This document shows positions 36,300 to 59,813 of a stretch of DNA of 64,000 bases, one piece after another. The DNA is from Parafrankia elaeagni (GTDB lineage: Bacteria > Actinomycetota > Actinomycetes > Frankiales > Frankiaceae). The DNA lies in the NCBI RefSeq assembly GCF_000374165.1, contig NZ_KB893714.1:79524-143523 (forward strand), given 5' to 3'. How positions within the stretch are numbered: the stretch's first letter is position 1; the number at the start of each line of letters is the position of its first letter. A program made the translations under genes and the position numbers. The notes below the pieces were generated by a model that was not told the origin of the DNA, ran no database searches, and saw only the letters and a program-made list of their open reading frames with translations.

Positions 36300-38009
36300 G
36301 TGCGTGCCCTCCCGCACCGGCTCGGCGCCCCCCGCCCGGGCTGGACCCGGGACGCCGACGTCGTGGTCATCGGGTCGGGGATCGCCGGTCTCACCGCGGT
36401 CCTGCGCATCCGGGCGGCCAGCCCGTGGCGCCGCGTCCTGCTGGTCACCAAGGCCCTGCTGGACGCCGGGTCGACCCGCTGGGCCCAGGGTGGCATCGCC
36501 GCGGCCCTGGGCGCGGAGGACTCGCCGGCCGAGCACCTGCGTGACACCCTCGTCGCCGGCGTCGGCCTGTGTGACCCGGCGGCGGTCGAGATCCTGGTCA
36601 CCGAGGGCCCGCCGCGGGTGCGCGAGCTCGCAGCCCTCGGCGCCCGGTTCGACCGTGATCCCGACGGGGCGTTCTCGCTCACGCGCGAGGGTGGGCACCT
36701 GCGGGACCGGGTCGCGCACGCCGGTGGCGACGCGACCGGCCTGGAGGTCGAGCGGGCACTGATCGCCGCCGTCCGCGCCGACCCGTCCATCGAGGTGCTG
36801 GAGCACGCGCTCGTCCTGGACCTGCTCACCGACCAGTCCGGCCGGGCCGTCGGTGCGACGCTGCACGTGCTCGGCGAGGGCAGCCAGGACGGTGTCGGCG
36901 CCGTCACTGCCCGCGCGGTGGTCCTGGCCACCGGCGGCATGGGGCAGATCTTCGCGTCGACGACCAACCCGGCGGTCTCCACCGGCGACGGGGTCGCACT
37001 CGCCCTGCGGGCCGGTGCCGTCGTGACCGATCTCGAGTTCGTCCAGTTCCATCCGACGGCGCTCTGGCTGCCCGAGGCGGGCCCCGGGCAGCAGCCGTTG
37101 GTCAGCGAGGCGATGCGGGGTGAGGGCGCGCTGCTGGTCGACGCGGCCGGGCGGCGGGTGATGGCGGGTGTCCACCCGCTGGCCGACCTCGCGCCGCGGG
37201 ACGTCGTCGCCAAGCAGATGTCGCGGGTGATGGCCGAGCAGGGCGTCGACCACCTCTACCTGGACGCTCGGCACCTCGGGGTCGAGACCCTGCTGCGCCG
37301 GTTCCCGACCATCACGGCGCGCTGCCGGGACGCCGGCGTCGACCCGGTGACCAGCCCGATCCCGGTCGCTCCGGCGGCGCACTACGCCAGCGGCGGGGTC
37401 CGGACGGACATGTGGGGCCGCACCAGCGTCCCCGGGCTGTACGCCTGCGGGGAGGTCGCCTGCACCGGGGTGCACGGCGCCAACCGGCTCGCGTCGAACA
37501 GCCTGCTCGAGGGCCTCGTCTTCGCGGCCCGGATCGCGGGGCACATCGCCGGCACCGGTGACGCGGGTGACGCGGGTGAACCCGGCGCTCCGGAGGCTCC
37601 ACTGCCGGCGGGCGTCGCGGTCGGCGCGCGCGGCTCGGGCCTGACGGACCCGGCGGAGCGGGCGGACCTGACCCGTGCCATGACGGACGGTGCCGGCGTC
37701 CTGCGCAGCGCCCAGAGCCTGCGGGCGACCGCGAAGATGCTCGCCGGCCTCGGTGACCTGCGGGTCAGCGGCGCCACCGTCAAGGCCGGTCCCCAGGCCT
37801 GGGAGATGACGAACCTGCGTACCGTGGCAGCCGCGCTGGTCGCCGCGGCGGCGCTGCGCACCGAGACCCGCGGCTGCCACTGGCGCGAGGACTTCGCCGA
37901 CCGCGACGACGGGAACTGGAACGGACACGTGCTGACCAGGCTGGACCCGGAGGGGGAACTGATCGTTACCTACGAGGCGCAGCCGGCCGCCCAGGTCGGG
38001 CCCGCGTGA
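36300..38009 (+). CDS. nadB: L-aspartate oxidase
   Basis: FAD enzyme that oxidises aspartate to iminoaspartate, entry to de novo NAD synthesis. The 569-residue product starts at GTG 36300, four bases after panD; the frame opens earlier inside panD. FAD-binding DVVVIGSGIAGLTAVLRIR is near residue 22. RWAQGGIAAAL, EFVQFHPTAL, SEAMRGEGALLVD and HGANRLASNSLLEGLVF follow. It is coupled to nadC by a four-base overlap. Quinolinate synthase (nadA) is not in the window. Confidence 0.95.
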   Translation: MRALPHRLGAPRPGWTRDADVVVIGSGIAGLTAVLRIRAASPWRRVLLVTKALLDAGSTRWAQGGIAAALGAEDSPAEHLRDTLVAGVGLCDPAAVEILVTEGPPRVRELAALGARFDRDPDGAFSLTREGGHLRDRVAHAGGDATGLEVERALIAAVRADPSIEVLEHALVLDLLTDQSGRAVGATLHVLGEGSQDGVGAVTARAVVLATGGMGQIFASTTNPAVSTGDGVALALRAGAVVTDLEFVQFHPTALWLPEAGPGQQPLVSEAMRGEGALLVDAAGRRVMAGVHPLADLAPRDVVAKQMSRVMAEQGVDHLYLDARHLGVETLLRRFPTITARCRDAGVDPVTSPIPVAPAAHYASGGVRTDMWGRTSVPGLYACGEVACTGVHGANRLASNSLLEGLVFAARIAGHIAGTGDAGDAGEPGAPEAPLPAGVAVGARGSGLTDPAERADLTRAMTDGAGVLRSAQSLRATAKMLAGLGDLRVSGATVKAGPQAWEMTNLRTVAAALVAAAALRTETRGCHWREDFADRDDGNWNGHVLTRLDPEGELIVTYEAQPAAQVGPA

Positions 38010-38962
38010 GCGTCGCGCACGTGCCCGCCGGACGCCCGGCGGGCGCCCAGCGGCTCACCGGGGCTGTGCTCACCGGTCTGCGGTCCGCGGGACTGGCCGA
38101 GTCCGTGGTCCTCGATGTGATCCATCGAGCGCTGACCGAGGATCTTCCGGAATCGGGAACCGGCTGGGCGGTGGACGCGACGTCCGCGGCGACCGTGGAT
38201 GCCGCGCTGACCAGCCATGGTTCGGTCGTGTCCCGGGCCCACGGGGTGGTCGCCGGCGTGCCGGTCGCGGCAGCGGTGTTCGAGACCCTGCTCGGCGACG
38301 CCGTCACCGTTCTTCCGGTGGCCGCCGACGGTGACCGGGTCGCCCCCGGTACCGAGGTTCTCCGGGTAAGTGGCCCGGTACGTGGTCTGCTCACCGCCGA
38401 ACGGACCGCGCTGAACCTGCTCTGCCACCTCTCCGGGGTGGCCACGGCGACCAGACGCTGGGTGGACGCGGTCGCCGGCACCGGCGCCGCCGTCCGGGAC
38501 ACCCGCAAGACCCTCCCCGGTCTGCGGGCGCTGGAGAAGTACGCGGTGCGCTGCGGCGGCGGGCACAACCACCGGATGTCGCTGACGGACGCCGCGCTGG
38601 TCAAGGACAACCACGTGATCGCGGCCGGTGGCGTCGCGGCGGCCTTCGCCGCGGTACGCGCCCACTTCGCGGACCTGCCGGTCGAGGTCGAGTGCGACAC
38701 CGTCGAGCAGGTCGCCGAGGCGGTGGGCGCCGGGGCCGACCTGATCCTCTGTGACAACATGTCGCTGGATGATCTGCGCGCGTCGGTGGCCATCGCCCAC
38801 CCTGCCGGCGTCCTGCTGGAGGCGAGCGGCGGCCTCACCCTCGACGTCGCCGCGGCGGTGGCCTCGACCGGGGTGAACTACCTGGCGGTCGGCGCGCTCA
38901 CCCATTCGGCGCCCGCGCTGGACCTCGGCTTCGACCTCGCGGTGACCACCGCCTCCCAGTGA
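38006..38962 (+). CDS. nadC: Nicotinate-nucleotide pyrophosphorylase (carboxylating)
   Basis: Quinolinate phosphoribosyltransferase converting quinolinate and PRPP to nicotinate mononucleotide. The 318-residue product starts at GTG overlapping nadB. Typical strings: RTALNLLCHLSGVATATRRW, DTRKTLPGLRALEKYAVRCG, NHRMSLTDAALVKDNH, and the C-terminal beta-barrel EASGGLTLD and VNYLAVGALTHSAPALDLG. About 20 residues of extra N terminus precede the conserved part. Confidence 0.96.
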   Translation: MSVAHVPAGRPAGAQRLTGAVLTGLRSAGLAESVVLDVIHRALTEDLPESGTGWAVDATSAATVDAALTSHGSVVSRAHGVVAGVPVAAAVFETLLGDAVTVLPVAADGDRVAPGTEVLRVSGPVRGLLTAERTALNLLCHLSGVATATRRWVDAVAGTGAAVRDTRKTLPGLRALEKYAVRCGGGHNHRMSLTDAALVKDNHVIAAGGVAAAFAAVRAHFADLPVEVECDTVEQVAEAVGAGADLILCDNMSLDDLRASVAIAHPAGVLLEASGGLTLDVAAAVASTGVNYLAVGALTHSAPALDLGFDLAVTTASQ

Positions 38963-43460: not shown

Positions 43461-43630
43461 GCCATGAACGTCTCCGCTGGTCGGCCGGCGATCCGGCCGC
43501 AGAGCTGTCCCCGACGAAGGGGGCGGTTCCGGCGGGTAGGTTTCTGTTCGATGCGTGAGGACATGCCTCGGCGGAGCTAGCATGCGGATACCGGCTGTCG
43601 TGTGGTCGGTCGCAGCTCGAAGGAGCGCAC

Positions 43631-46135
43631 ATGTTCGAGAGGTTCACCGACCGGGCACGTCGGGTCGTCGTCCTGGCTCAGGAAGAAGCCAGGATGCTCA
43701 ACCACAACTACATCGGGACCGAGCACATCCTGCTCGGCCTGATCCACGAGGGCGAGGGCGTCGCCGCTAAGGCCCTCGAGTCGCTCGGGATCTCGCTCGA
43801 GGGTGTGCGGTCGCAGGTCGAAGAGATCATCGGCCAGGGTCAGCAGGCGCCGAGCGGGCACATCCCGTTCACGCCGCGAGCCAAGAAGGTCCTTGAGCTC
43901 TCGCTGCGCGAGGCCCTCCAGCTCGGTCACAACTACATCGGCACCGAGCACATCCTGCTCGGCCTCATCCGCGAGGGCGAGGGCGTCGCCGCCCAGGTGC
44001 TGGTCAAGCTCGGAGCGGACCTCAACCGGGTCCGCCAGCAGGTCATCCAGCTCCTGTCCGGCTACCAGGGCAAGGGCGACCCGGCGACCGCCGGCGCCCC
44101 GGCCGAGGGCACGCCGTCGACCTCGCTGGTCCTCGACCAGTTCGGCCGCAACCTCACCGCGGCCGCTCGTGAGTCCAAGCTCGACCCGGTCATCGGGCGC
44201 GAGAAGGAGATCGAGCGCGTCATGCAGGTGCTGTCGCGCCGGACCAAGAACAACCCGGTCCTCATCGGCGAGCCCGGCGTCGGCAAGACCGCCGTCGTCG
44301 AGGGGCTGGCGCAGGCGATCGTCAAGGGCGAGGTCCCCGAGACCCTGAAGGACAAGCAGCTCTACACCCTCGACCTCGGCGCTCTGGTCGCCGGGTCCCG
44401 CTACCGCGGTGACTTCGAGGAGCGGCTGAAGAAGGTCCTCAAGGAGATCCGCACCCGCGGCGACATCATCCTGTTCATCGACGAGCTCCACACGCTCGTC
44501 GGTGCGGGTGCCGCCGAGGGCGCGATCGACGCCGCCTCCATCCTCAAGCCGATGCTGGCGCGCGGTGAGCTGCAGACGATCGGCGCGACCACCCTGGACG
44601 AGTACCGCAAGCACCTGGAGAAGGACGCTGCGCTCGAGCGCCGCTTCCAGCCCATTCAGGTCGCGGAGCCGTCGGTGGCGCACACCATCGAGATCCTCAA
44701 GGGTCTGCGCGACCGGTACGAGGCGCACCACCGTGTCTCGATCACCGACGCCGCCCTGGTCGCCGCGGCCTCCCTGGCCGACCGCTACATCTCCGACCGG
44801 TTCCTGCCGGACAAGGCGATCGACCTGATCGACGAGGCCGGCTCCCGGATGCGCATCCGCCGGATGACCGCTCCGCCGGACCTGCGTGAGTTCGACGAGC
44901 GCATCGCGAACGTCCGGCGCGACAAGGAGTCCGCGATCGACGCGCAGGACTTCGAGAAGGCCGCGTCGCTGCGGGACAAGGAGAAGACCCTGCTGGCCGA
45001 GAAGGCCAAGCGGGAGAAGGAGTGGAAGGCCGGCGACATGGACGTCGTCGCCGAGGTCGGCGACGAGGAGATCGCGGAGGTCCTCGCGATCTGGACCGGC
45101 ATCCCGGTCTTCAAGCTCACCGAGGAGGAGACCGCGCGTCTGCTCCGTATGGAGGACGAGCTCCACCGCCGGGTCATCGGCCAGGAGCAGGCCATCAAGG
45201 CCGTCTCCCAGGCGATCCGGCGTACCCGCGCCGGTCTGAAGGACCCGAAGCGCCCCGGCGGCTCGTTCATCTTCGCCGGCCCGTCCGGTGTCGGTAAGAC
45301 CGAGCTGTCGAAGACGCTGGCGGAGTTCCTCTTCGGCGACGAGGACGCGCTCATCCAGCTCGACATGTCCGAGTACATGGAGAAGCACACCGTCTCGCGG
45401 CTGGTGGGCTCCCCGCCCGGCTACGTCGGGTACGAGGAGGGCGGCCAGCTCACCGAGCGGGTGCGGCGCAAGCCGTTCTCCGTGGTCCTCTTCGACGAGG
45501 TCGAGAAGGCCCACCCGGACGTGTTCAACACCCTCCTGCAGATCCTGGAGGACGGTCGTCTGACCGACTCCCAGGGCCGGCTGGTCGACTTCAAGAACAC
45601 CGTCCTGATCATGACCTCGAACCTGGGCACCCGAGACATCTCCAAGGGCCCCGGCATCGGCTTCGCCACCGGTCAGGGCGCGGTCGACTACGAGCGCATG
45701 AAGGCCAAGGTCCAGGACGAGCTCAAGCAGCACTTCCGGCCTGAGTTCCTGAACCGGATCGACGACATCATCGTCTTCCACCAGCTCTCCGAGGCCGAGA
45801 TCATCCAGATCGTGGACCTCATGCTGGCCCGGGTCGACGGCCAGCTGAAGAACAAGGACATGGCGCTGGAGCTCACTCCGGCGGCCAAGGCCCTGCTCGC
45901 CAAGCGCGGCTACGACCCGGTGCTGGGTGCCCGTCCGCTGCGCCGGACGATCCAGCGGGAGATCGAGGACGTCCTGTCCGAGAAGATCCTCTACGGGACG
46001 CTGCGTCCCGGTGAGATCGTCGTCGGCGATGTCGAGGGTGAAGGCGAGGAGGCGAAGTTCGTCTTCCGCGGCGAGACCAAGCCGAACTCGGTCCCGGACG
46101 CTCCCCCGATCGACCTGGCCAAGTCCAGCGAATGA
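43631..46135 (+). CDS. clpC: ATP-dependent Clp protease ATP-binding subunit ClpC
   Basis: AAA+ unfoldase feeding ClpP; cytoplasmic, essential in many actinobacteria. The 834 residues start at ATG ([20 protein letters not shown]). Two Clp-N repeats contain [14 protein letters not shown] twice. First AAA+ has GEPGVGKT and [12 protein letters not shown]; a UVR-type motif lies in the linker ([20 protein letters not shown]); second AAA+ has GPSGVGKTE and [10 protein letters not shown]; the end is Glu/Asp-rich. A UVR motif and short middle domain separate it from ClpB. Its strong codon and sequence conservation stand out here. It is followed by a perfect hairpin terminator. Confidence 0.97.
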
Positions 46136-46140
46136 TGTGA

Positions 46141-46179
46141 CCGAAGGGCGGTCGCGCGACCCGCGTGACCGCCCTTCGG
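46141..46179 (+). terminator. Hairpin terminator of clpC
   Basis: A 13-bp perfect stem (CCGAAGGGCGGTC at 46141-46153 and GACCGCCCTTCGG at 46167-46179) has a 13-base loop, five bases after the clpC stop. It ends just before an ATG at 46181, which argues that the next gene starts later. Confidence 0.85.
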
Positions 46180-46210
46180 CATGTCCGTCGCGCCGCTGTC
46201 TCCGGAAGTC

Positions 46211-47698
46211 ATGCCTCGACACCTCGACGAAGATCTGCCCAGCTCCTCGACCGTGCCCGGTTCCGGTCCGAGCGCCGAACACGGCGTGCACCTCACCTTC
46301 GGTGCGGACCCGGCCACCTCGATGGTTGTCTCGTGGATCACCCGGGCGCCGGTCCGGCAGCCCCAGGTCCACATCCGCGCCACCCGCCCAGGCGCTCCGG
46401 CGGGCTCGTCCGTCGGAGCCGTCACGCGCAGCTACACCGACTCGACCACGCGACGTGAGATCTTCGCGCACCACGCGCTGCTGGACGGTCTGCAGCCGGA
46501 CACCGAGTACCGGTACGAGCTGTCCTTCCGGGCAGGCCGGGCCCGCACCGCGACCGGCGCCACTTTTCGCACCGCACCGCGGGGACGGGCCGCGTTCACC
46601 TTCACCTGCTTCGGGGATCACGGCACGGACCGGCCCGCCGACCCGCACGGGACCGCGGCCTCCGGCACCCTGGTGACGGGGCTCGAGCGACTCGCACCGC
46701 TGTTCACCCTGGTGAACGGCGACCTGGCCTATTCGAACGTGCGGGACATCCCGCCGACCGCCTGGTCGGACTGGTTCGCGATGATCAGTCCCTCGGCCAC
46801 CCGCCGCCCGTGGATGCCGGCTCCGGGGAACCACGAGACCGAGCGCGGCAACGGCGCCCTCGGTCTGGCCGCGTACCAGACCTACTTCCAGCTGCCGGGC
46901 AACGGCGCGGAACCGTACCTGAACGGCCTCTGGTACGCCTTCGCCGTCGGCGGGGTGCGGTTCATCGTCCTCAGCGGCGACGATGTCTGCCACCAGGACG
47001 CAGGGCGGGTCTACCTGCACGGCTACAGCTCCGGGCGGCAGACCGCCTGGCTGGAGCAGGAGCTGAAGCAGGCCCGTGCCGACCGGGACGTCGACTGGGT
47101 GATCGTCGCCGTGCACCAGGCGGCCGTGTCCACCGCCGAGTTCCACAACGGCGCTGATCTGGGCCTGCGCGAGGAATGGCTGCCGTTGTTCGACCGGTAC
47201 GGGGTCGATCTGGTGCTCAGTGGGCATGAGCACCACTACGAGCGGACCCATCCGCTGCGCGGCGTTGTCGCGGGGACGCCGACGCGCACCCCGCGGCCGG
47301 TACCGGGAGCGACGACCGTCGTGGACGGAGAGACCACCATCGACACCTCGGCCGGTGGTGTCCACATGCTCGTCGGCACGGGCGGCTCGTCCACCCCGTC
47401 CGCGCACCGGTTGTTCGACCCGCCGGCCTGCCGGGTGACCGTCGGGGTGCGCGAGCCCGAACCGGGCCAGCGGCATCATCCGTCGGTGCGGGTGACGGAG
47501 TCCGCGCCCTGGCTCGCGGCCCGGTTCCCGGAGCATCCCTACGCCTTCGCCGGCTTCGCCGTGGAGCCCGGAGCCGACGGCGGGCCCACCCGGATCCGGG
47601 TGACGGTCTACGACTCGTCGACGGCCGAACCCGTCCCGTTCGACACGTTCACCCTGGTGCGCCCCCGCGGCGACAGCGGCGACAGCGGCGACGCCTGA
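46211..47698 (+). CDS. Purple-acid-phosphatase-like metallophosphoesterase
   Basis: The 495-residue product has an N-terminal fibronectin-III-like domain (about 25-120: GVHLTFGADPATSMVVSWIT). A metallophosphoesterase domain follows. Metal-ligand strings are visible: FTCFGDHGTD, VNGDLAYSN, APGNHETERG, AVHQAAVST and LSGHEHHYERTHPL. The order GDxG/GDxxY/GNHE/H/GHxH is that of purple acid phosphatases. No signal peptide is evident in the chosen start (ATG 46211, GGAAG just upstream), which is unusual for a family that is mostly secreted. ATG 46181 abuts the terminator and is less likely. Confidence 0.87.
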   Translation: MPRHLDEDLPSSSTVPGSGPSAEHGVHLTFGADPATSMVVSWITRAPVRQPQVHIRATRPGAPAGSSVGAVTRSYTDSTTRREIFAHHALLDGLQPDTEYRYELSFRAGRARTATGATFRTAPRGRAAFTFTCFGDHGTDRPADPHGTAASGTLVTGLERLAPLFTLVNGDLAYSNVRDIPPTAWSDWFAMISPSATRRPWMPAPGNHETERGNGALGLAAYQTYFQLPGNGAEPYLNGLWYAFAVGGVRFIVLSGDDVCHQDAGRVYLHGYSSGRQTAWLEQELKQARADRDVDWVIVAVHQAAVSTAEFHNGADLGLREEWLPLFDRYGVDLVLSGHEHHYERTHPLRGVVAGTPTRTPRPVPGATTVVDGETTIDTSAGGVHMLVGTGGSSTPSAHRLFDPPACRVTVGVREPEPGQRHHPSVRVTESAPWLAARFPEHPYAFAGFAVEPGADGGPTRIRVTVYDSSTAEPVPFDTFTLVRPRGDSGDSGDA

Positions 47699-47919
47699 CC
47701 GGGGGGAGGTCTGACCTTCCGGCGCCCCGGACATCTTCCCGACACCCGCACCCTGCGACCCGACAAGCCGAAACGCCGCGTCTCCGGCAGCTGGTGGCCC
47801 CATGTCGGTGTCCTGACACGGATCCGATCGTCCCCAAGTTGACGCCTTTGATTATGTATGGGGACGGCTACCGACACGTCCTATAGCGTGATCGGGTTGG
47901 CGTGGCGGGGACGGAGGCC

Positions 47920-49590
47920 ATGGGTAGCTCACTAGTACCAATCATGCTCATCGTGGTGCTGCTCGTGGGCGCCGTTGTCTTTGTGGTGCTCTCCAGTCGA
48001 GCCCCGCGCACCGGCTACGAGTCGGGGCGCCGGCGGACGCTGGAGACACGACGCGCCCGCAGGGGCGGCATTCCACTGCGGGACACCCCGCCCCCCGAAC
48101 CACCGGACGGCGTCGGGCCGGATCTCCCGGCCGCTTCGGCCGCGCCCGTCGCCGCCGCCCCCGTGATCACAATGGCGGACGGGGGCGAGCCCGGCGGCGG
48201 ATCCGACAGCGACCCCGGCGCGGCCGGCCCGGCCTGGGGCGACGGTACCGGATGGGTCGACTGGGACGGTGCGGAGGCCACCCAGGTCACCAGTCTGAGC
48301 GACCCCGGGGCCGACTCACCCGACGTGACCGGAGCCACAGCCGTGGGCGGGTATGCCGACACAGCCACCTCCGTGACAGACGGTGTGCCGGGGGCGGGTC
48401 ACAATATCGGTGGCGCGTACCCAGCACGCGCCGGCACCGCCGCGGACCAGGCGGATACCCCGTACCACGGGGAGTACTTCGCCACCGGAGCCCAGACCGG
48501 TGAATCCCATGCCAACGCACACAGCAGGGACACCTCTATGAACGACAGCCGGGACCCGGATGCCACCGGGTGGACCCCGCCGCCCAGTGGCCGTCCGCAC
48601 CACACCGAGGTGGACGACTCCGCCTACCGGTTGCCGATGGACGACCAGCCGGGCCTGAGCGGCTACAGCGGGCCGGCGTCCTACCCCGACCCCACGGCGG
48701 GTGAGACGCAGCGCGTCAGCGCCGGCCCGGACGGCCCGGACGCCCCCGGCCAGGCACCGACCTGGCCGGACCCGGCCTGGGGCGGTGCCGGCGCCGCCGG
48801 CGACACGGCGGCCACGGTGGCGGACACGGCCCTGTCGCCCGAGTCGGGAGCGGCCGGGATCGTGGCGCCCGAGCCGGCCCAGACCACCGCGCCCGCCCTG
48901 CGGCTCGCCGCCGCCGGCCGCACGCGGCGCGGCAAGCGCGGCGGTCCCAACGAGGACGCCTACGTGGTCTCCGACGGCCTGCTCGCGGTCTCGGACGGGG
49001 TCGGAGGCGAGGCCGCCGGCCAGATCGCCTCCACCCTGACGGTCACCACCGTCGCCGGCTTCCGCCCCCAGTACGCCCGGGACCCCGCCGACGGGCTCCG
49101 GCAGGCCGTCGCACGCGCCAACCAGGTGGTGCGGGAGAAACCCCGGGAGGAACCGGCCTGGCGGGGCATGGCGTGCACCCTCGACGTCGTCATCCTCGGG
49201 CGGCAGCAGTCCACCGGCGAGACGCTGTTCATCGCGCACGTCGGCGACAGTTCGGTGTGGCTGCAGCCGCGGAAGGGGCGCCCGCACCAGATCACCACCC
49301 CGCATGCGATCAAGAACGGCCCGCTGCTCAACGCGGTCGGTCTCGCGGACCACATCGAGGCCGACATCCTGCGTGAGCCGGTCCGGGCCGGCGACCGGGT
49401 CATCCTGGCCAGTGACGGCATCACCAAGGTGATGACCCCGGAGCAGCTGCTCGGGCTGATGGCCGAGCTCGGTGCCGAGCCGCCGGAGCGGGCCGCCGAC
49501 GCTCTCGTGGAGGCAGCGCTGCTGGCCGGCGCGCGGGACGACACCACGATCGTGGTCGCTGACGTGGTCTCCGAGCCCGCCGCACGGTGA
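47920..49590 (+). CDS. Membrane-anchored PP2C-family protein phosphatase
   Basis: The 556-residue protein has an N-terminal membrane helix (SLVPIMLIVVLLVGAVVFVV, residues 4-23), then about 310 residues of Gly/Asp/Pro/Thr-rich linker. The C-terminal PP2C domain (last 240) has metal-binding motifs intact: GPNEDAYVV, AVSDGVGGEAAGQ, FIAHVGDSSVWL, LASDGITKVM and ARDDTTIVV. It likely dephosphorylates Ser/Thr proteins at the membrane face. GTG 47902 would add six residues. The gap to the next gene is seven bases, so it shares an operon with the TrkA-N/RyR protein and may act on it. Confidence 0.88.
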   Translation: MGSSLVPIMLIVVLLVGAVVFVVLSSRAPRTGYESGRRRTLETRRARRGGIPLRDTPPPEPPDGVGPDLPAASAAPVAAAPVITMADGGEPGGGSDSDPGAAGPAWGDGTGWVDWDGAEATQVTSLSDPGADSPDVTGATAVGGYADTATSVTDGVPGAGHNIGGAYPARAGTAADQADTPYHGEYFATGAQTGESHANAHSRDTSMNDSRDPDATGWTPPPSGRPHHTEVDDSAYRLPMDDQPGLSGYSGPASYPDPTAGETQRVSAGPDGPDAPGQAPTWPDPAWGGAGAAGDTAATVADTALSPESGAAGIVAPEPAQTTAPALRLAAAGRTRRGKRGGPNEDAYVVSDGLLAVSDGVGGEAAGQIASTLTVTTVAGFRPQYARDPADGLRQAVARANQVVREKPREEPAWRGMACTLDVVILGRQQSTGETLFIAHVGDSSVWLQPRKGRPHQITTPHAIKNGPLLNAVGLADHIEADILREPVRAGDRVILASDGITKVMTPEQLLGLMAELGAEPPERAADALVEAALLAGARDDTTIVVADVVSEPAAR

Positions 49591-49597
49591 CAGCTCG

Positions 49598-51493
49598 TTG
49601 GCCGGGGTGACCGGCGGGCTGGTCGGCCGGACGGGCCGGTGGCTGCGCCGGCACCTGCTCGGGCTGTTCGGGGTCCTCGGGCTGGTCGCGATGGTGCTGA
49701 GCCTGATCGGCACCTATCAGCACTTCGCGGCGACGCCGGAGACCTTCACCTGGGCCAACGTGGTCTTCTTCGCCTCCACCCTGTTCCTCGCGGACGGGAC
49801 GATGTTCGAGGGCGGCGGGCAGTTCCCGCCCGCCCTGGAGGTGGCCCGCTTCCTCGCCCCGCTGGCGACCGCGGTCGGTGTCGCCGACGCCGTGAGCACC
49901 CTGTTCGCCCACCGGTTCGAGCGGTTCCGGGCCCGGCACGCGCGCCGGCACGTCGTCGTCTGCGGCAGTGGGCCGACCGCGTCCGCGCTGGTCGACAAGC
50001 TGGTCGGCAGCAACCGCGTGGTGCTGGTCGCCCAGGACGCCGGGCAGGAGTACCCGGACGCCGAGCGGCCCCCCAACCTGCTGCGGATCAACGGCGACCC
50101 GGTGGAGCGGATCGTTCTGCAGGGCGCCGGGATCGCGCGCGCCGACGTCGTCTACAGCTGTCTGGGCGACACGGCGTCCAACCTGGCGGTGACCCTCACC
50201 GCCAGGGGGGTGGTGCGGGCCGGGCGTACCCGGTACCGCCGCACCGCGGACGCCCGGGTGGACAACCCCCTGCGCTGCCTCGCCCAGGTCGGCGACCTGT
50301 CACTGCTGCCGCACCTGCGGGCCCGCCGGATCGGGCTGGAGAACGACCCCGGCTTCCGGCTCGACTTCTTCGCGATCGAGGTGCTCGGCGCGCATTCCCT
50401 GCTCAACAGCAATGCGCCGGCCTGGGCCCGGCCCAACCGGGCGCCCGATCTGCCCGCACGGCCGCCGCACCTGGTCGTGCTGGGGATGTCCGGCCTGGGC
50501 CTGGCGCTCGTGATGGAGCTCGCCCGGCGGTGGCGGGATTCCAGCGCCCCCGGCGATCCCCTGCTGCGCATCGTGCTGTCGGGGCGGGATGCCTCCGGGC
50601 ACGCCGCCGCTATGCGCTCCCGCGAGCCGGCGCTGGCACGGGTCGAGCTGCTGGCCCACGACAGTGCGTCCGGGGAGCTGCCCACCGGTCTGATCCTCGC
50701 CCAGGACGGCCCGGGCGAGCCGCCGGAGTTCGTCTACGTGTGTCACCGTGACGAGGAGGAGGCCCTGCTGCGCGGGCTGGAGGTGCTGCGCGCGGTCGGC
50801 GCCACCGGCCTCGGCGAGCGCCGGACCAGGATCGTCGTGCGCACCGGCCGCCAGCGCAGCTTCGAGGACGTCTTCGGCTCCCGCAACCCGCCCGTCGACG
50901 AGGACCCGCTGCCGCTGGATGACAGCGGGCTGCTGGACAGCGTCCAGGGCGGGCTGCGTTTCTTCGCCGTGAACGATCAGGCACTGCCGCTGGACCCCGG
51001 CGCGAACGACCTCATCGAGCGGTTCGCCCAGATCATCCACGAGAAGTACCTGGCGAAGGAGCGGGCCGGCGGCGCGGCGATGGGCAGCCGGCGCAGCCTG
51101 CGTCCGTGGGAGGAGCTGGACCACGATCTCCAGGCGTCGAACCGGGCGCAGGCGATCGGCTACAGCGACGTCCTGCGGCGGCGGAACTGGATGCTGGTGC
51201 CGCTCGGCGAGCACGATCCGGAGTTCTCCTTCACCGCGGACGAGGTGGACCAGCTGGCGCGGGAGGAGCATCTGCGCTGGTGGCGGGAGCGGGAGAGCCG
51301 CGGAGTCCGGTACGGGCCGCTGGAGCTGGACGGCTCGGACCCGCGCCATCCCTCACTCGTCGACTGGGAGAACCTCTCCCGCGACGACCGGTTGCGCAGT
51401 GAGGCGGTCGTGCTCAACATGCCCGCCGTCCTGGCCGCCGCCGGGCTGGGCATCGTGCGGATGACCCCGCGGCCGCCGGACCCCGTCGCCTGA
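49598..51493 (+). CDS. Membrane TrkA-N / RyR-domain protein (putative gated channel)
   Basis: The 631-residue product appears to start at TTG 49598 (or GTG 49607), directly after the PP2C stop. Two helices flank a re-entrant, pore-like segment (LLGLFGVLGLVAMVLSLIGT; TWANVVFFASTLFLADG; FLAPLATAVGVADAVSTLFA). An NAD-binding TrkA-N domain follows (HVVVCGSGPTASALVDKL ... VVYSCLGDTASNLAVTL). A second Rossmann-like part comes next (PHLVVLGMSGLGLALVMELA). The last about 85 residues form an RyR domain (REEHLRWWRERESRGVRYGP, HPSLVDWENLSRDDR). This resembles K+-channel RCK architecture, but no TVGYG-type selectivity filter is seen. Ion, ligand and role are unknown. Confidence 0.75.
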   Translation: MAGVTGGLVGRTGRWLRRHLLGLFGVLGLVAMVLSLIGTYQHFAATPETFTWANVVFFASTLFLADGTMFEGGGQFPPALEVARFLAPLATAVGVADAVSTLFAHRFERFRARHARRHVVVCGSGPTASALVDKLVGSNRVVLVAQDAGQEYPDAERPPNLLRINGDPVERIVLQGAGIARADVVYSCLGDTASNLAVTLTARGVVRAGRTRYRRTADARVDNPLRCLAQVGDLSLLPHLRARRIGLENDPGFRLDFFAIEVLGAHSLLNSNAPAWARPNRAPDLPARPPHLVVLGMSGLGLALVMELARRWRDSSAPGDPLLRIVLSGRDASGHAAAMRSREPALARVELLAHDSASGELPTGLILAQDGPGEPPEFVYVCHRDEEEALLRGLEVLRAVGATGLGERRTRIVVRTGRQRSFEDVFGSRNPPVDEDPLPLDDSGLLDSVQGGLRFFAVNDQALPLDPGANDLIERFAQIIHEKYLAKERAGGAAMGSRRSLRPWEELDHDLQASNRAQAIGYSDVLRRRNWMLVPLGEHDPEFSFTADEVDQLAREEHLRWWRERESRGVRYGPLELDGSDPRHPSLVDWENLSRDDRLRSEAVVLNMPAVLAAAGLGIVRMTPRPPDPVA

Positions 51494-58887: not shown

Positions 58888-58934
58888 CGGCAGCCCACCA
58901 GCCACTCACCCCTCACGTGACCGGGGAAGGGACC

Positions 58935-59813
58935 GTGACCGAACCCTCGCCACCCGCCCGTGCCGGCTCTCCAGCCACCGTCGAGCCCACTCCGACCCCG
59001 CGCACCCCTGCCGGCGGCGCGGGCCTGGCCGCGCTGCTCACGGCCCCGGAGAAGGCTCTGGTCGCCCTCGACTACGACGGCACCCTCGCGCCGATCGTCT
59101 CCCGGCCCGGTGACGCGGTCCCCGCCCCCGGTGCCATGGCCGCGCTGCGCCGGATCGCCCGTCGGGTCGGCACCCTGGCGATCATCACCGGCCGCCCGGT
59201 GGAGGCCGTCCTCGAACTCACCGAGGCCGAGCGGTTCACCGACCTGGAACGGCTGGTCGTCCTGGGCCAGTACGGCCTGCAACGGTGGGACGCCCAGACC
59301 GGGCAGACCGTCGGTCCCGAGCCGCTGCCCGGGGTCACCGCCCTGCGCGGCGCGCTGGCCCAGGCCCTGCTCGACGCCCCCGCCGGGACGTCCGTCGAGG
59401 ACAAACGGCACGCCCTGGTCGTCCACGTGCGGCGCACCGCCGACCCGGACGCGGCACTCGCCGCGCTCACGCCTGCCCTCAGCCGGCTCGCGCAGGAACA
59501 CGGGCTGGAGGCGGCGCCCGGCAAACGGGTCCTGGAACTGCGCCCACCGGGGCACGACAAGGGCGGGGCGCTGCGCACACTGGTCGCGCAGCGCCACGCC
59601 CGGTCGGTGCTGGTGGCCGGCGACGACCTCGGTGACCTCCCGGCCTTCGAGGCCGTCGACGAGCTGCGGGCCGGCGGCATCGGCGGGATCACCGTGTGCA
59701 GTGACAGCCCCGAGGTGCCGGAGGTGCTGCGTTCCCGCGCTGACCTGGTGGTCGGCGGGCCCGCCGGCATGGTCACGCTGCTGGAGGTCCTGGCCGACCG
59801 CATCGGGGCCTGA
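58935..59813 (+). CDS. otsB: Trehalose-6-phosphate phosphatase
   Basis: HAD-superfamily phosphatase making trehalose. The 292-residue product uses GTG 58935 behind GGGGAAGGGA; GTG 58917 is possible. Motif I is VALDYDGTLAPIVS, motif II region IITGRPVEAVLEL, and motif IV VLVAGDDLGDLPAFEAVDEL. The Asp nucleophile, Thr, Lys (GKRVLEL) and acidic pair are present. It faces otsA tail to tail, 19 bp apart. Confidence 0.93.
   Translation: MTEPSPPARAGSPATVEPTPTPRTPAGGAGLAALLTAPEKALVALDYDGTLAPIVSRPGDAVPAPGAMAALRRIARRVGTLAIITGRPVEAVLELTEAERFTDLERLVVLGQYGLQRWDAQTGQTVGPEPLPGVTALRGALAQALLDAPAGTSVEDKRHALVVHVRRTADPDAALAALTPALSRLAQEHGLEAAPGKRVLELRPPGHDKGGALRTLVAQRHARSVLVAGDDLGDLPAFEAVDELRAGGIGGITVCSDSPEVPEVLRSRADLVVGGPAGMVTLLEVLADRIGA

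What the first reader, a model, noticed from the sequence alone, without database searches (positions are those of the whole stretch)
47920..51493. PP2C phosphatase coupled to a membrane TrkA-N/RyR protein
A membrane-tethered PP2C is separated by only seven bases from a protein joining a pore-like two-helix membrane part, two Rossmann-type domains and a C-terminal RyR domain. RyR domains are rare in bacteria. The layout suggests a phosphorylation- and nucleotide-gated channel or sensor, but I know no characterised system of this make-up.
Basis: partly seen in the sequence, partly recalled or inferred. Interest (0 to 1): 0.7.

Follow-up and report, generated by a model that had tools for sequence, protein, structure and literature searches.

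The report
Membrane nucleotide sensor beside a phosphatase
A soil bacterium's gene pair encodes a membrane phosphatase and a membrane protein that joins potassium-channel-type regulatory domains to the nucleotide-binding module of animal ryanodine receptors; in another large group of actinobacteria such proteins sit near TIR immune-signal genes, which suggests a bacterial counterpart of animal cyclic-ADP-ribose signalling.

Summary
At 47920-49590 lies a PP2C phosphatase with one N-terminal membrane helix and intact active-site motifs. Seven bases on, at 49598-51493, lies a protein with two membrane helices, a TrkA-N (RCK) domain, a second Rossmann unit and a C-terminal RyR module. That module is a full tandem "Repeat12". 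Three of the four ligand residues of phage RyDEP are present (H558, W561, H584); the catalytic Asp is Ser601. The pore is unproven: no potassium filter, no Pfam ion-channel match, low-confidence models.

The PP2C partner is real but narrow: adjacent in 18 of 18 readable Parafrankia/Frankia loci, yet an older core gene that stands without the channel in other Frankiaceae. In another genus (inferred Mycobacterium), 61 of 65 RyR places lie within 8 kb of a TIR match (0.56 expected for all 73 places tested), and TIR occurs in 49 of 50 RyR-positive against 5 of 20 RyR-negative genomes. TIR enzymes make cyclic ADP-riboses and phage RyR proteins bind them, so I read the family as membrane effectors gated by ADP-ribose-type nucleotides. 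The window gene has no TIR neighbour; its genome has 16 TIR matches elsewhere. My searches found no description of this pairing, but one key preprint could not be read.

The parts
47920..49590 (+). PP2C-type Ser/Thr phosphatase gene, membrane-anchored by one N-terminal helix, long low-complexity linker, C-terminal catalytic domain
   Evidence: start ATG supported by conserved MGSSLVPIM start in four Frankia copies
47932..47991 (+). N-terminal membrane helix of the PP2C (residues 11-30 of the 562-aa frame from GTG 47902)
   Evidence: hydropathy maximum 3.28
48919..49566 (+). PP2C catalytic domain, motifs NED, VSDGVGG, GDS, SDG, DD present
   Evidence: Pfam PF13672 / PF00481, NCBIfam Stp1 109.8 bits, below its 230 cut-off, motifs
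49598..51493 (+). gene of the membrane RCK/RyR-Repeat12 protein (TTG start; GTG 49607 possible)
49649..49717 (+). first membrane helix (about residues 18-40)
   Evidence: hydropathy 2.52 at 20-38; helix in models
49751..49822 (+). helix and loop between the membrane helices (residues 52-75), where a pore helix and filter would lie; reads ..STLFLADGTMFEGGGQ, no GYG-type filter
49829..49912 (+). second membrane helix (residues 78-105); L(E/Q)xARF motif in 19 of 26 homologues
49949..50317 (+). TrkA-N / RCK Rossmann unit (about residues 118-240)
   Evidence: Pfam PF02254 3.7e-11
50465..50887 (+). second Rossmann-like unit (about residues 290-430)
   Evidence: profile match to the first unit E 4e-6 over only 21 columns; full-length model best matches the TrkA gating ring 4j9v, 4.2e-7, but TM-score only 0.16-0.20
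51005..51463 (+). RyR Repeat12-like tandem module (residues 470-622), repeat 1 about 470-535, repeat 2 about 546-622
   Evidence: Pfam PF02026 (second repeat); repeat 1 vs 2 E 6.8e-10; Foldseek RyR3 Repeat12 6uhe, target TM 0.57
51269..51280 (+). H558 and W561, the HxxW ligand motif (H75, W78 of RyDEP)
   Evidence: kept in 26 of 26 aligned homologues; register inferred from matched ranges with 35tm and PMC13232231 section 4
51347..51349 (+). H584 (H100 of RyDEP, same inference)
   Evidence: 24 of 26 homologues
51398..51400 (+). S601, at the place of RyDEP catalytic D117 (same inference)
   Evidence: D in 14 of 26, A in 5, N in 4, S in 3

Best explanation
The second protein is a membrane-bound nucleotide receptor-effector. 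Its C-terminal tandem RyR Repeat12 module most likely binds an adenine or ADP-ribose-type nucleotide in a clamshell cleft (H558, W561, H584). Closure of the cleft would be passed through the two RCK/Rossmann units, probably as an oligomeric ring, to the two-helix membrane part, changing ion permeability or membrane integrity. In other actinobacteria the nucleotide is probably a cyclic ADP-ribose made by a neighbouring TIR enzyme, as in Thoeris defence. In Parafrankia and Frankia the gene is a fixed chromosomal gene with no TIR neighbour, so it would answer in trans to the genome's TIR enzymes or to metabolic ADP-ribose/ADP. The membrane PP2C next to it, inherited jointly in that clade, may reset or tune it by dephosphorylation. 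Shown: domain make-up, tandem repeat, ligand-residue conservation, PP2C adjacency in one clade, TIR linkage in other genera. Inferred: ligand identity, gating, oligomer, conduction, PP2C substrate, role in defence.
For: Domains. Tandem Repeat12. Ligand residues. Repeat12 of RyR3 binds ADP/AMP-PCP and closes like a clamshell (passages of PMC12627627, part of its abstract included). Phage RyR proteins bind or cleave 2'/3'cADPR (sections 4, 5 and 22 of PMC13232231). TIR linkage: 61 of 65 RyR places in 57 genomes of one genus (inferred Mycobacterium) within 8 kb of a TIR match, 38 within 1.5 kb; 4 of 8 places in other genera; 0.56 of 73 expected. TIR in 49 of 50 RyR+ vs 5 of 20 RyR- genomes of that genus, Fisher p 3e-10, relatedness not corrected. 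Two adjacent TIR genes confirmed by Pfam as TIR plus PknH_C. Rhodococcus qingshengii plasmid homologue with annotated TIR genes on both sides, about 7 and 3.6 kb away. PP2C adjacency 18 of 18 readable loci. 20 of 20 Frankiaceae genomes with a homologue that were tested hold TIR matches, 16 in the own genome; the two Frankiaceae without any match to the protein hold none (one of them 63% complete).
Against: No TIR gene in the 64-kb window or in any fetched Frankiaceae RyR locus (home-made profile), so the TIR link is borrowed from homologues with about 30-41% identity in the RyR module. A pore is not shown: no ion-channel Pfam match with a working positive control, membrane-part profile comparison with K+ channels weak, model confidence low. 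PP2C is an older core gene without the channel next to it elsewhere. No hit in PADLOC for the RyR protein. 4 of 8 RyR genomes outside that genus have no TIR match at all; one of these, G147, carries the full TrkA_N-RyR form. Near-copies and shared ancestry inflate the counts. No ligand has been measured for any bacterial membrane RyR protein in what I could read.
Confidence: 0.5

Rival explanations
1. House-keeping energy or osmotic sensor: the protein is a non-defence channel or sensor that reads ADP/ATP or NAD(H) through its RCK and Repeat12 units, as TrkA reads ATP/ADP, with PP2C as its regulator; the TIR link in other genera is a separate use of the same module.
For: Core chromosomal locus beside clpC and kept in Parafrankia and Frankia; no TIR nearby; RyR Repeat12 of animals binds ADP and an ATP analogue; TrkA closes its channel with ADP and opens it with ATP (start of abstract of PMC6987127 in a search listing); best Foldseek match is the TrkA gating ring.
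Against: The family's strongest genomic association is with TIR genes, and TIR-linked rows fall both in the mycobacterial-type clade and among rows that group with Frankiaceae.
Confidence: 0.28
2. Sponge or sink: the Repeat12 module only binds or hydrolyses ADP-ribose-type molecules near the membrane, limiting TIR signalling as a self-protective brake, with no gating of the membrane part.
For: Phage RyR proteins act as sponges or glycosidases against Thoeris; stand-alone RyR proteins of about 150-190 aa occur in Frankia; H558, W561, H584 kept.
Against: Catalytic Asp is Ser here and D in only 14 of 26 homologues; a sponge needs neither two Rossmann units nor a conserved membrane part.
Confidence: 0.12
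3. Chance neighbours (a rival for the PP2C pairing only): the PP2C and the RyR protein share a locus but not a function; the RyR gene came to lie once downstream of an older PP2C gene and stayed there by descent.
For: PP2C-linked proteins form one clade (100/100, 9 rows); in 8 Frankiaceae loci read out the PP2C stands without the RyR gene, one of them a Frankia, G014; PP2C ortholog in 32 of 35 Frankiaceae genomes at E < 1e-89.
Against: Same order and strand in 18 of 18 readable loci of two genera down to 54-61% identity of the RyR protein, with a 7-base gap here; both proteins have membrane helices.
Confidence: 0.4

Closest known systems
Thoeris and other TIR-based defence (TIR enzyme plus nucleotide-gated effector)
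   Same: Homologues in other genera pair a membrane RyR protein with a TIR gene, some with sensor parts (PknH_C, nSTAND1-WD40); RyR modules of phages bind 2'/3'cADPR (PMC13232231, sections read).
   Different: Sensor of the effector would be RyR Repeat12 rather than SLOG or Macro (those two recalled, from no call); the window gene has no TIR next to it; PADLOC finds nothing for it; no defence test exists in what I read.
Animal ryanodine receptor Repeat12 domain (PF02026)
   Same: Tandem repeat, HxxW and second His, fold match in the model, sequence match of a related module at 2.5e-21.
   Different: No other RyR parts found by Pfam; 631 residues instead of about 5000; attached to RCK units and two membrane helices.
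Phage RyDEP (DyoEdafos gp78; taken to be PDB 35tm from its name and the matching residues)
   Same: Ligand residues H75, W78, H100 correspond to H558, W561, H584.
   Different: Catalytic D117 is Ser601; membrane protein with RCK units; cellular gene.
RCK-gated K+ channels and TrkA gating rings (MthK, GsuK, TrkH/TrkA)
   Same: Two-helix membrane part followed by TrkA_N and a second Rossmann unit; paralogue L123 aligns from the first helix to RCK (29%, E 3e-13).
   Different: No GYG-type filter, no Ion_trans_2 match, RyR module at the C terminus.
Stp1/PstP-type PP2C phosphatases
   Same: Catalytic motifs present; PF13672 and PF00481 above cut-off.
   Different: N-terminal anchor; NCBIfam Stp1 score 109.8 under its cut-off 230; the other PP2C match of the genome (C48, 37%) may be the usual PstP (inference).

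Membership tests
RyR / Repeat12 domain (PF02026) | Profile match above the curated cut-off | tested here: met
   30.0 bits vs 27.4; 25.9, below, in the six-frame scan
RyR / Repeat12 domain (PF02026) | Tandem two-repeat fold | tested here: met
   repeat 1 vs 2 E 6.8e-10; Foldseek 6uhe target TM 0.57, on a model with block pLDDT 60-83 in this part except residues 571-580
RyR / Repeat12 domain (PF02026) | Ligand residues HxxW and second His | tested here: met
   H558, W561, H584
RyDEP glycosidase | Catalytic dyad His + Asp | tested here: not met
   H558 present, S601 at the Asp place
Ryanodine receptor Ca2+-release channel | Other RyR domains and channel core | tested here: not met
   Pfam finds only TrkA_N and RyR above cut-off in 631 aa
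K+ channel with RCK domains | GYG-type selectivity filter and Ion_trans_2 pore | tested here: not met
   no GYG, GFG or TxG(Y/F)G in 26 N-terminal parts; no Pfam ion-channel match in 6 while control L123 matches 7.4e-9
K+ channel with RCK domains | TrkA_N/RCK domain behind a membrane part | tested here: met
Ion channel in general | Tetrameric pore, conductance | tested here: inconclusive
   helix, short helix, helix order in models, pLDDT under 50 over about residues 52-95 or more
Thoeris-like TIR system | TIR gene in the same locus | tested here: not met
   no TIR in window or fetched Frankiaceae loci; met in other genera
Thoeris-like TIR system | Known effector family in defence database | tested here: not met
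   PADLOC: none for the RyR protein, one weak hit (3.2e-3) for the PP2C
Thoeris-like TIR system | Effector activated by a TIR product; phage protection | not testable with these tools
   needs biochemistry
PP2C Ser/Thr phosphatase | Domain and metal-binding motifs | tested here: met
Stp1/IreP equivalog (NF033484) | Score above curated cut-off | tested here: not met
   109.8 vs 230 bits

The most novel reading that the evidence does not exclude
Bacterial membrane RyR proteins are the missing bacterial form of a cyclic-ADP-ribose-gated RyR channel: TIR enzymes make the signal and Repeat12 senses it. In Frankiaceae one constitutive RyR channel serves as a shared executor for many dispersed TIR sensors (6 to 43 matches per genome in 20 genomes), much as helper channels serve many TIR receptors in plants (recalled), with the membrane PP2C as off-switch. 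Phage RyDEP would then be a copy of the effector's own sensor turned against it.
Probability: 0.2. Interest if true: 0.88.

Novelty: new variant of a known kind. Interest (0 to 1): 0.66.

Why it matters
Whether cyclic ADP-ribose acts directly on ryanodine receptors has been argued over for decades (recalled; the RyDEP preprint raises it too). A small bacterial membrane protein that carries the same Repeat12 module, and whose homologues in other genera sit beside TIR genes, offers a simple, testable system for that question. It would also add an RCK/RyR membrane effector to the list of TIR-signalling outputs and suggest where phage RyR proteins came from. The PP2C pair in Parafrankia and Frankia would add phosphorylation control, which I have not seen described for such effectors in the passages read here.

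Tried and rejected
PP2C as the defining partner of the family: rejected as a general rule, since the pair is limited to one clade and the PP2C is found without it elsewhere. Known defence system: PADLOC gave nothing for the RyR protein. K+ channel by sequence: Pfam on the N-terminal parts and the membrane-part profile comparison failed to support it. Pore by structure: two AlphaFold2 jobs, mean pLDDT 56.6 and 44.8, inconclusive; they were built from 8 and 7 rows because, of what I held, only window and the search for related loci sequences are allowed there. The residue ranges of the RyR match in the model could not be read, because the second aligner was busy; the tandem repeat was shown by sequence profiles instead. 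Plasmid search with a second homologue found nothing. Phage search with the window's own module found nothing at E 0.01, while a related module found 236 phage records at E 0.1, best 3e-8. TIR tests in the genus of G098 used 50 of the 92 further RyR-positive genomes and 20 of the 149 RyR-negative ones, in list order; no correction for relatedness was made. The per-match list was cut; absence of TIR near the Frankiaceae RyR loci rests on a home-made TIR profile over the window and the fetched loci. My script labels for some flanking genes (such as inositolP, otsA, otsB, thrC) were guesses; Pfam shows the first to be a Glu/Leu/Phe/Val dehydrogenase and 58917-59813 to be trehalose-phosphatase-like. 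The alignment of RyDEP chain 35tm was never printed: the residue register is inferred from the matched ranges (557-602 to 75-119; 94-144 to 74-124, equal lengths) and a one-residue offset of the chain.

Literature: 10 searches; in the titles and abstract starts listed I saw no paper on a TrkA-RyR protein or a TIR-RyR membrane pair. Several lists were cut (20 of 1,671; 20 of 38; 20 of 323; 12 of 28) and most listed papers were not opened. [quoted passage not shown] Two further papers tried by DOI are not held. PMC7159879 and PMC8195603 were searched for terms only (none found; two ryanodine entries that read like references).
Full report
What is there. The window lies in a Parafrankia-like genome: a full-length copy of the protein, 99% identical, is in Parafrankia colletiae, and the own genome is G000 with 7.6 Mb in 135 contigs. 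At 47920-49590 is a PP2C phosphatase with one N-terminal membrane helix, a long low-complexity linker and a C-terminal catalytic domain with its motifs present. Seven bases later starts a 631-residue protein (TTG 49598; GTG 49607 also possible), ending at 51493. Pfam gives TrkA_N at residues 119-207 (3.7e-11) and RyR at 550-617 (6.1e-7). Before TrkA_N are two hydrophobic helices with a short predicted helix between them. Between TrkA_N and RyR is a second Rossmann-like unit: the two units match each other as profiles at E 4e-6, though over only 21 columns, and the best fold match of the full model is the TrkA gating ring, at a low global TM-score.

The RyR part is a complete Repeat12. Profiles of residues 468-537 and 545-623 match each other at 6.8e-10, while comparisons with the Rossmann parts give 0.31 to 0.43. 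The model, of modest confidence, matches RyR3 Repeat12 crystal structures (6uhe 2.4e-4, target TM 0.57; also 9l9b with ADP and dantrolene, 2.0e-3). The window module alone reaches RyR1 at 3.5e-4 and 35tm, taken to be RyDEP, at 0.0073; a related Frankiaceae module (L041) reaches a RyR1 chimera at 2.5e-21 and 35tm at 2.3e-6 over stretches of equal length. From those ranges, with a one-residue offset of the chain, RyDEP H75, W78, H100 and D117 correspond to H558, W561, H584 and S601 here; the alignment itself was not printed. The residue roles come from sections 4 and 5 of PMC13232231. Among 26 aligned full-length homologues, many closely related, HxxW is kept in 26, the second His in 24, and the Asp in 14. 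Animal Repeat12 binds ADP or an ATP analogue with clamshell closure (passages of PMC12627627). So the module should bind a nucleotide; the Ser at the catalytic place argues against a glycosidase in this copy. Both are inference.

The pore question. The order helix, short helix, helix, RCK is that of two-helix RCK channels, and a paralogue in the same genome with a TVGYGD filter aligns from the first helix through the RCK unit at E 3e-13, 29% identity. But that score probably leans on the RCK part: the membrane part alone gives an hhalign probability of 3.5% and P 0.012, Pfam finds no ion-channel domain in six N-terminal parts of the family while the paralogue control matches at 7.4e-9, none of the 26 rows shows a GYG-type filter, and models stay below pLDDT 50 from about residue 52 to 95 or further. 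A membrane effector is likely; an ion channel is possible but not shown.

The PP2C partner. In 18 of 18 loci (the window, 6 other genomes of the Parafrankia genus g1, 11 of the Frankia genus g5; genus names from the records) the PP2C lies directly upstream on the same strand; a nineteenth, L019, starts at a contig end and could not be judged. In 11 more distant Frankiaceae loci (L020-L030) none is found in the fetched flanks. A strong PP2C ortholog (E below 1e-89) is in 32 of 35 other Frankiaceae genomes. In eight of these read out (L114-L121), one of them of the Frankia genus (G014), it stands without the RyR gene, in 6 of the 8 with clpC in the same stretch as in the window. The PP2C-linked proteins (9 rows) form one clade, 100/100. 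The pair therefore seems to have arisen once and been kept in two genera; that is moderate evidence of function.

The TIR link. Outside Frankiaceae, RyR genes of Actinomycetes sit near TIR genes. In 15 RyR-positive genomes, 11 have any TIR match, and in all 11 the nearest lies on the same contig within 8 kb. Outside that genus it is 4 of 8 places, the other four being in genomes with no TIR match. Random placement in 6 Mb would give 0.56 of all 73. TIR occurs in 49 of 50 RyR-positive against 5 of 20 RyR-negative genomes of that genus (Fisher p 3e-10, not corrected for relatedness). Pfam shows TIR plus PknH_C in the genes next to the RyR gene in L107 and L109, and TIR in nearby genes of L099 and L103 and L098 (there with a PNP match below cut-off). 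In L048 and L106 neighbouring nSTAND1-WD40 proteins carry the TIR part by genome scan and home-made profile. Seven of the eight printed TIR stretches (L107, L109, L103, L101, L048, L099, L111b) show a Glu about where TIR NADases have their catalytic Glu; the eighth is cut off before it (the role of that Glu is recalled and the placement is by eye). A 39%-identical homologue of the L107 protein lies on a Rhodococcus qingshengii plasmid with annotated TIR genes on both sides, about 7 and 3.6 kb away; its own RyR Pfam score is below cut-off. TIR-linked proteins occur in a clade of their own and also among rows that group with Frankiaceae, G233 and G232 (G232 is on a long branch).

Frankiaceae. 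No TIR lies in the window or in any fetched Frankiaceae RyR locus. Yet all 20 tested Frankiaceae genomes with a homologue hold TIR matches, 6 to 43 each, 16 in the own genome. The two relatives of the family without a match to the protein, G008 (63% complete) and G012, hold none. Of 55 genomes without a listed RyR match, those two included, 16 have TIR, 1 to 3 each. This fits an effector serving TIR enzymes in trans, but kinship alone could produce it.

Most likely working. A nucleotide made or released in the cell closes the Repeat12 clamshell; the RCK/Rossmann ring passes this to the membrane helices; the membrane becomes leaky to ions or the potential drops; the PP2C may reset it in Parafrankia and Frankia. 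Steps shown: anatomy, residues, neighbourhoods. Steps inferred: everything dynamic. The strongest rival is a house-keeping energy sensor, since the window gene is a core chromosomal gene without a TIR neighbour.

Novelty. Ten paper searches, several with cut lists, showed no TrkA-RyR or TIR-RyR membrane system in the titles and abstract starts listed (calls in Tried and rejected). PMC13232231 (abstract, sections 4, 5 and 22, part 1 of section 26, and passages elsewhere) deals with phage RyR proteins and compares them with animal RyR and a Bacteroides RyR-like protein. The TIR-system survey it cites is not held, so priority cannot be judged. I rate it a new variant of a known kind, TIR-type nucleotide signalling, with the Parafrankia/Frankia PP2C pair as a further variation.

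Noticed in passing
L107:4944-6482, L109:8977-10533: TIR domain fused to a PknH_C extracellular-type domain next to the membrane RyR gene: a possible envelope-sensing TIR receptor.
   Followed up: partly
L043:7307-7867, L044:7445-7954, L046:7231-7779, L047:5688-6254: Stand-alone RyR proteins of 169-188 aa in Frankia-genus genomes, next to a 1320-1360-aa membrane-type protein (arabinofuranosyltransferase-like by my recall, not tested); possible sponge or soluble sensor.
   Followed up: no
L032:1188-1727: A stand-alone RyR gene of 179 aa directly downstream of the membrane RyR gene in G009.
   Followed up: no
L036:7575-9851: In G014 the distant membrane RyR gene is split by stop codons; intact copies exist in other genomes. 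Its PP2C locus (L118) lacks the RyR gene.
   Followed up: no
L099:4792-6722: Next to a membrane RyR gene in G233: a TPR-S protein and a weakly SLOG-like (YAcAr, below cut-off) protein, both of kinds linked to nucleotide conflict systems (recalled).
   Followed up: partly
L098:6926-9332: A TIR gene (with a below-cut-off PNP match) overlapping a 100-aa RyR gene in G125, perhaps a minimal sensor pair.
   Followed up: partly
L101:1550-4324: 924-aa protein with two RyR-like stretches by home-made profile (Pfam below cut-off), beside a stand-alone RyR gene; four TIR matches on the same contig of G192.
   Followed up: no
window 36300-38962: Likely NAD biosynthesis genes about 9-11 kb upstream (first one matches FAD_binding_2; nadB/nadC names by recall).
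   Followed up: no
window 43577-47803 (-): A 1408-codon open frame antisense to clpC and the purple acid phosphatase gene, probably a high-GC artefact.
   Followed up: no
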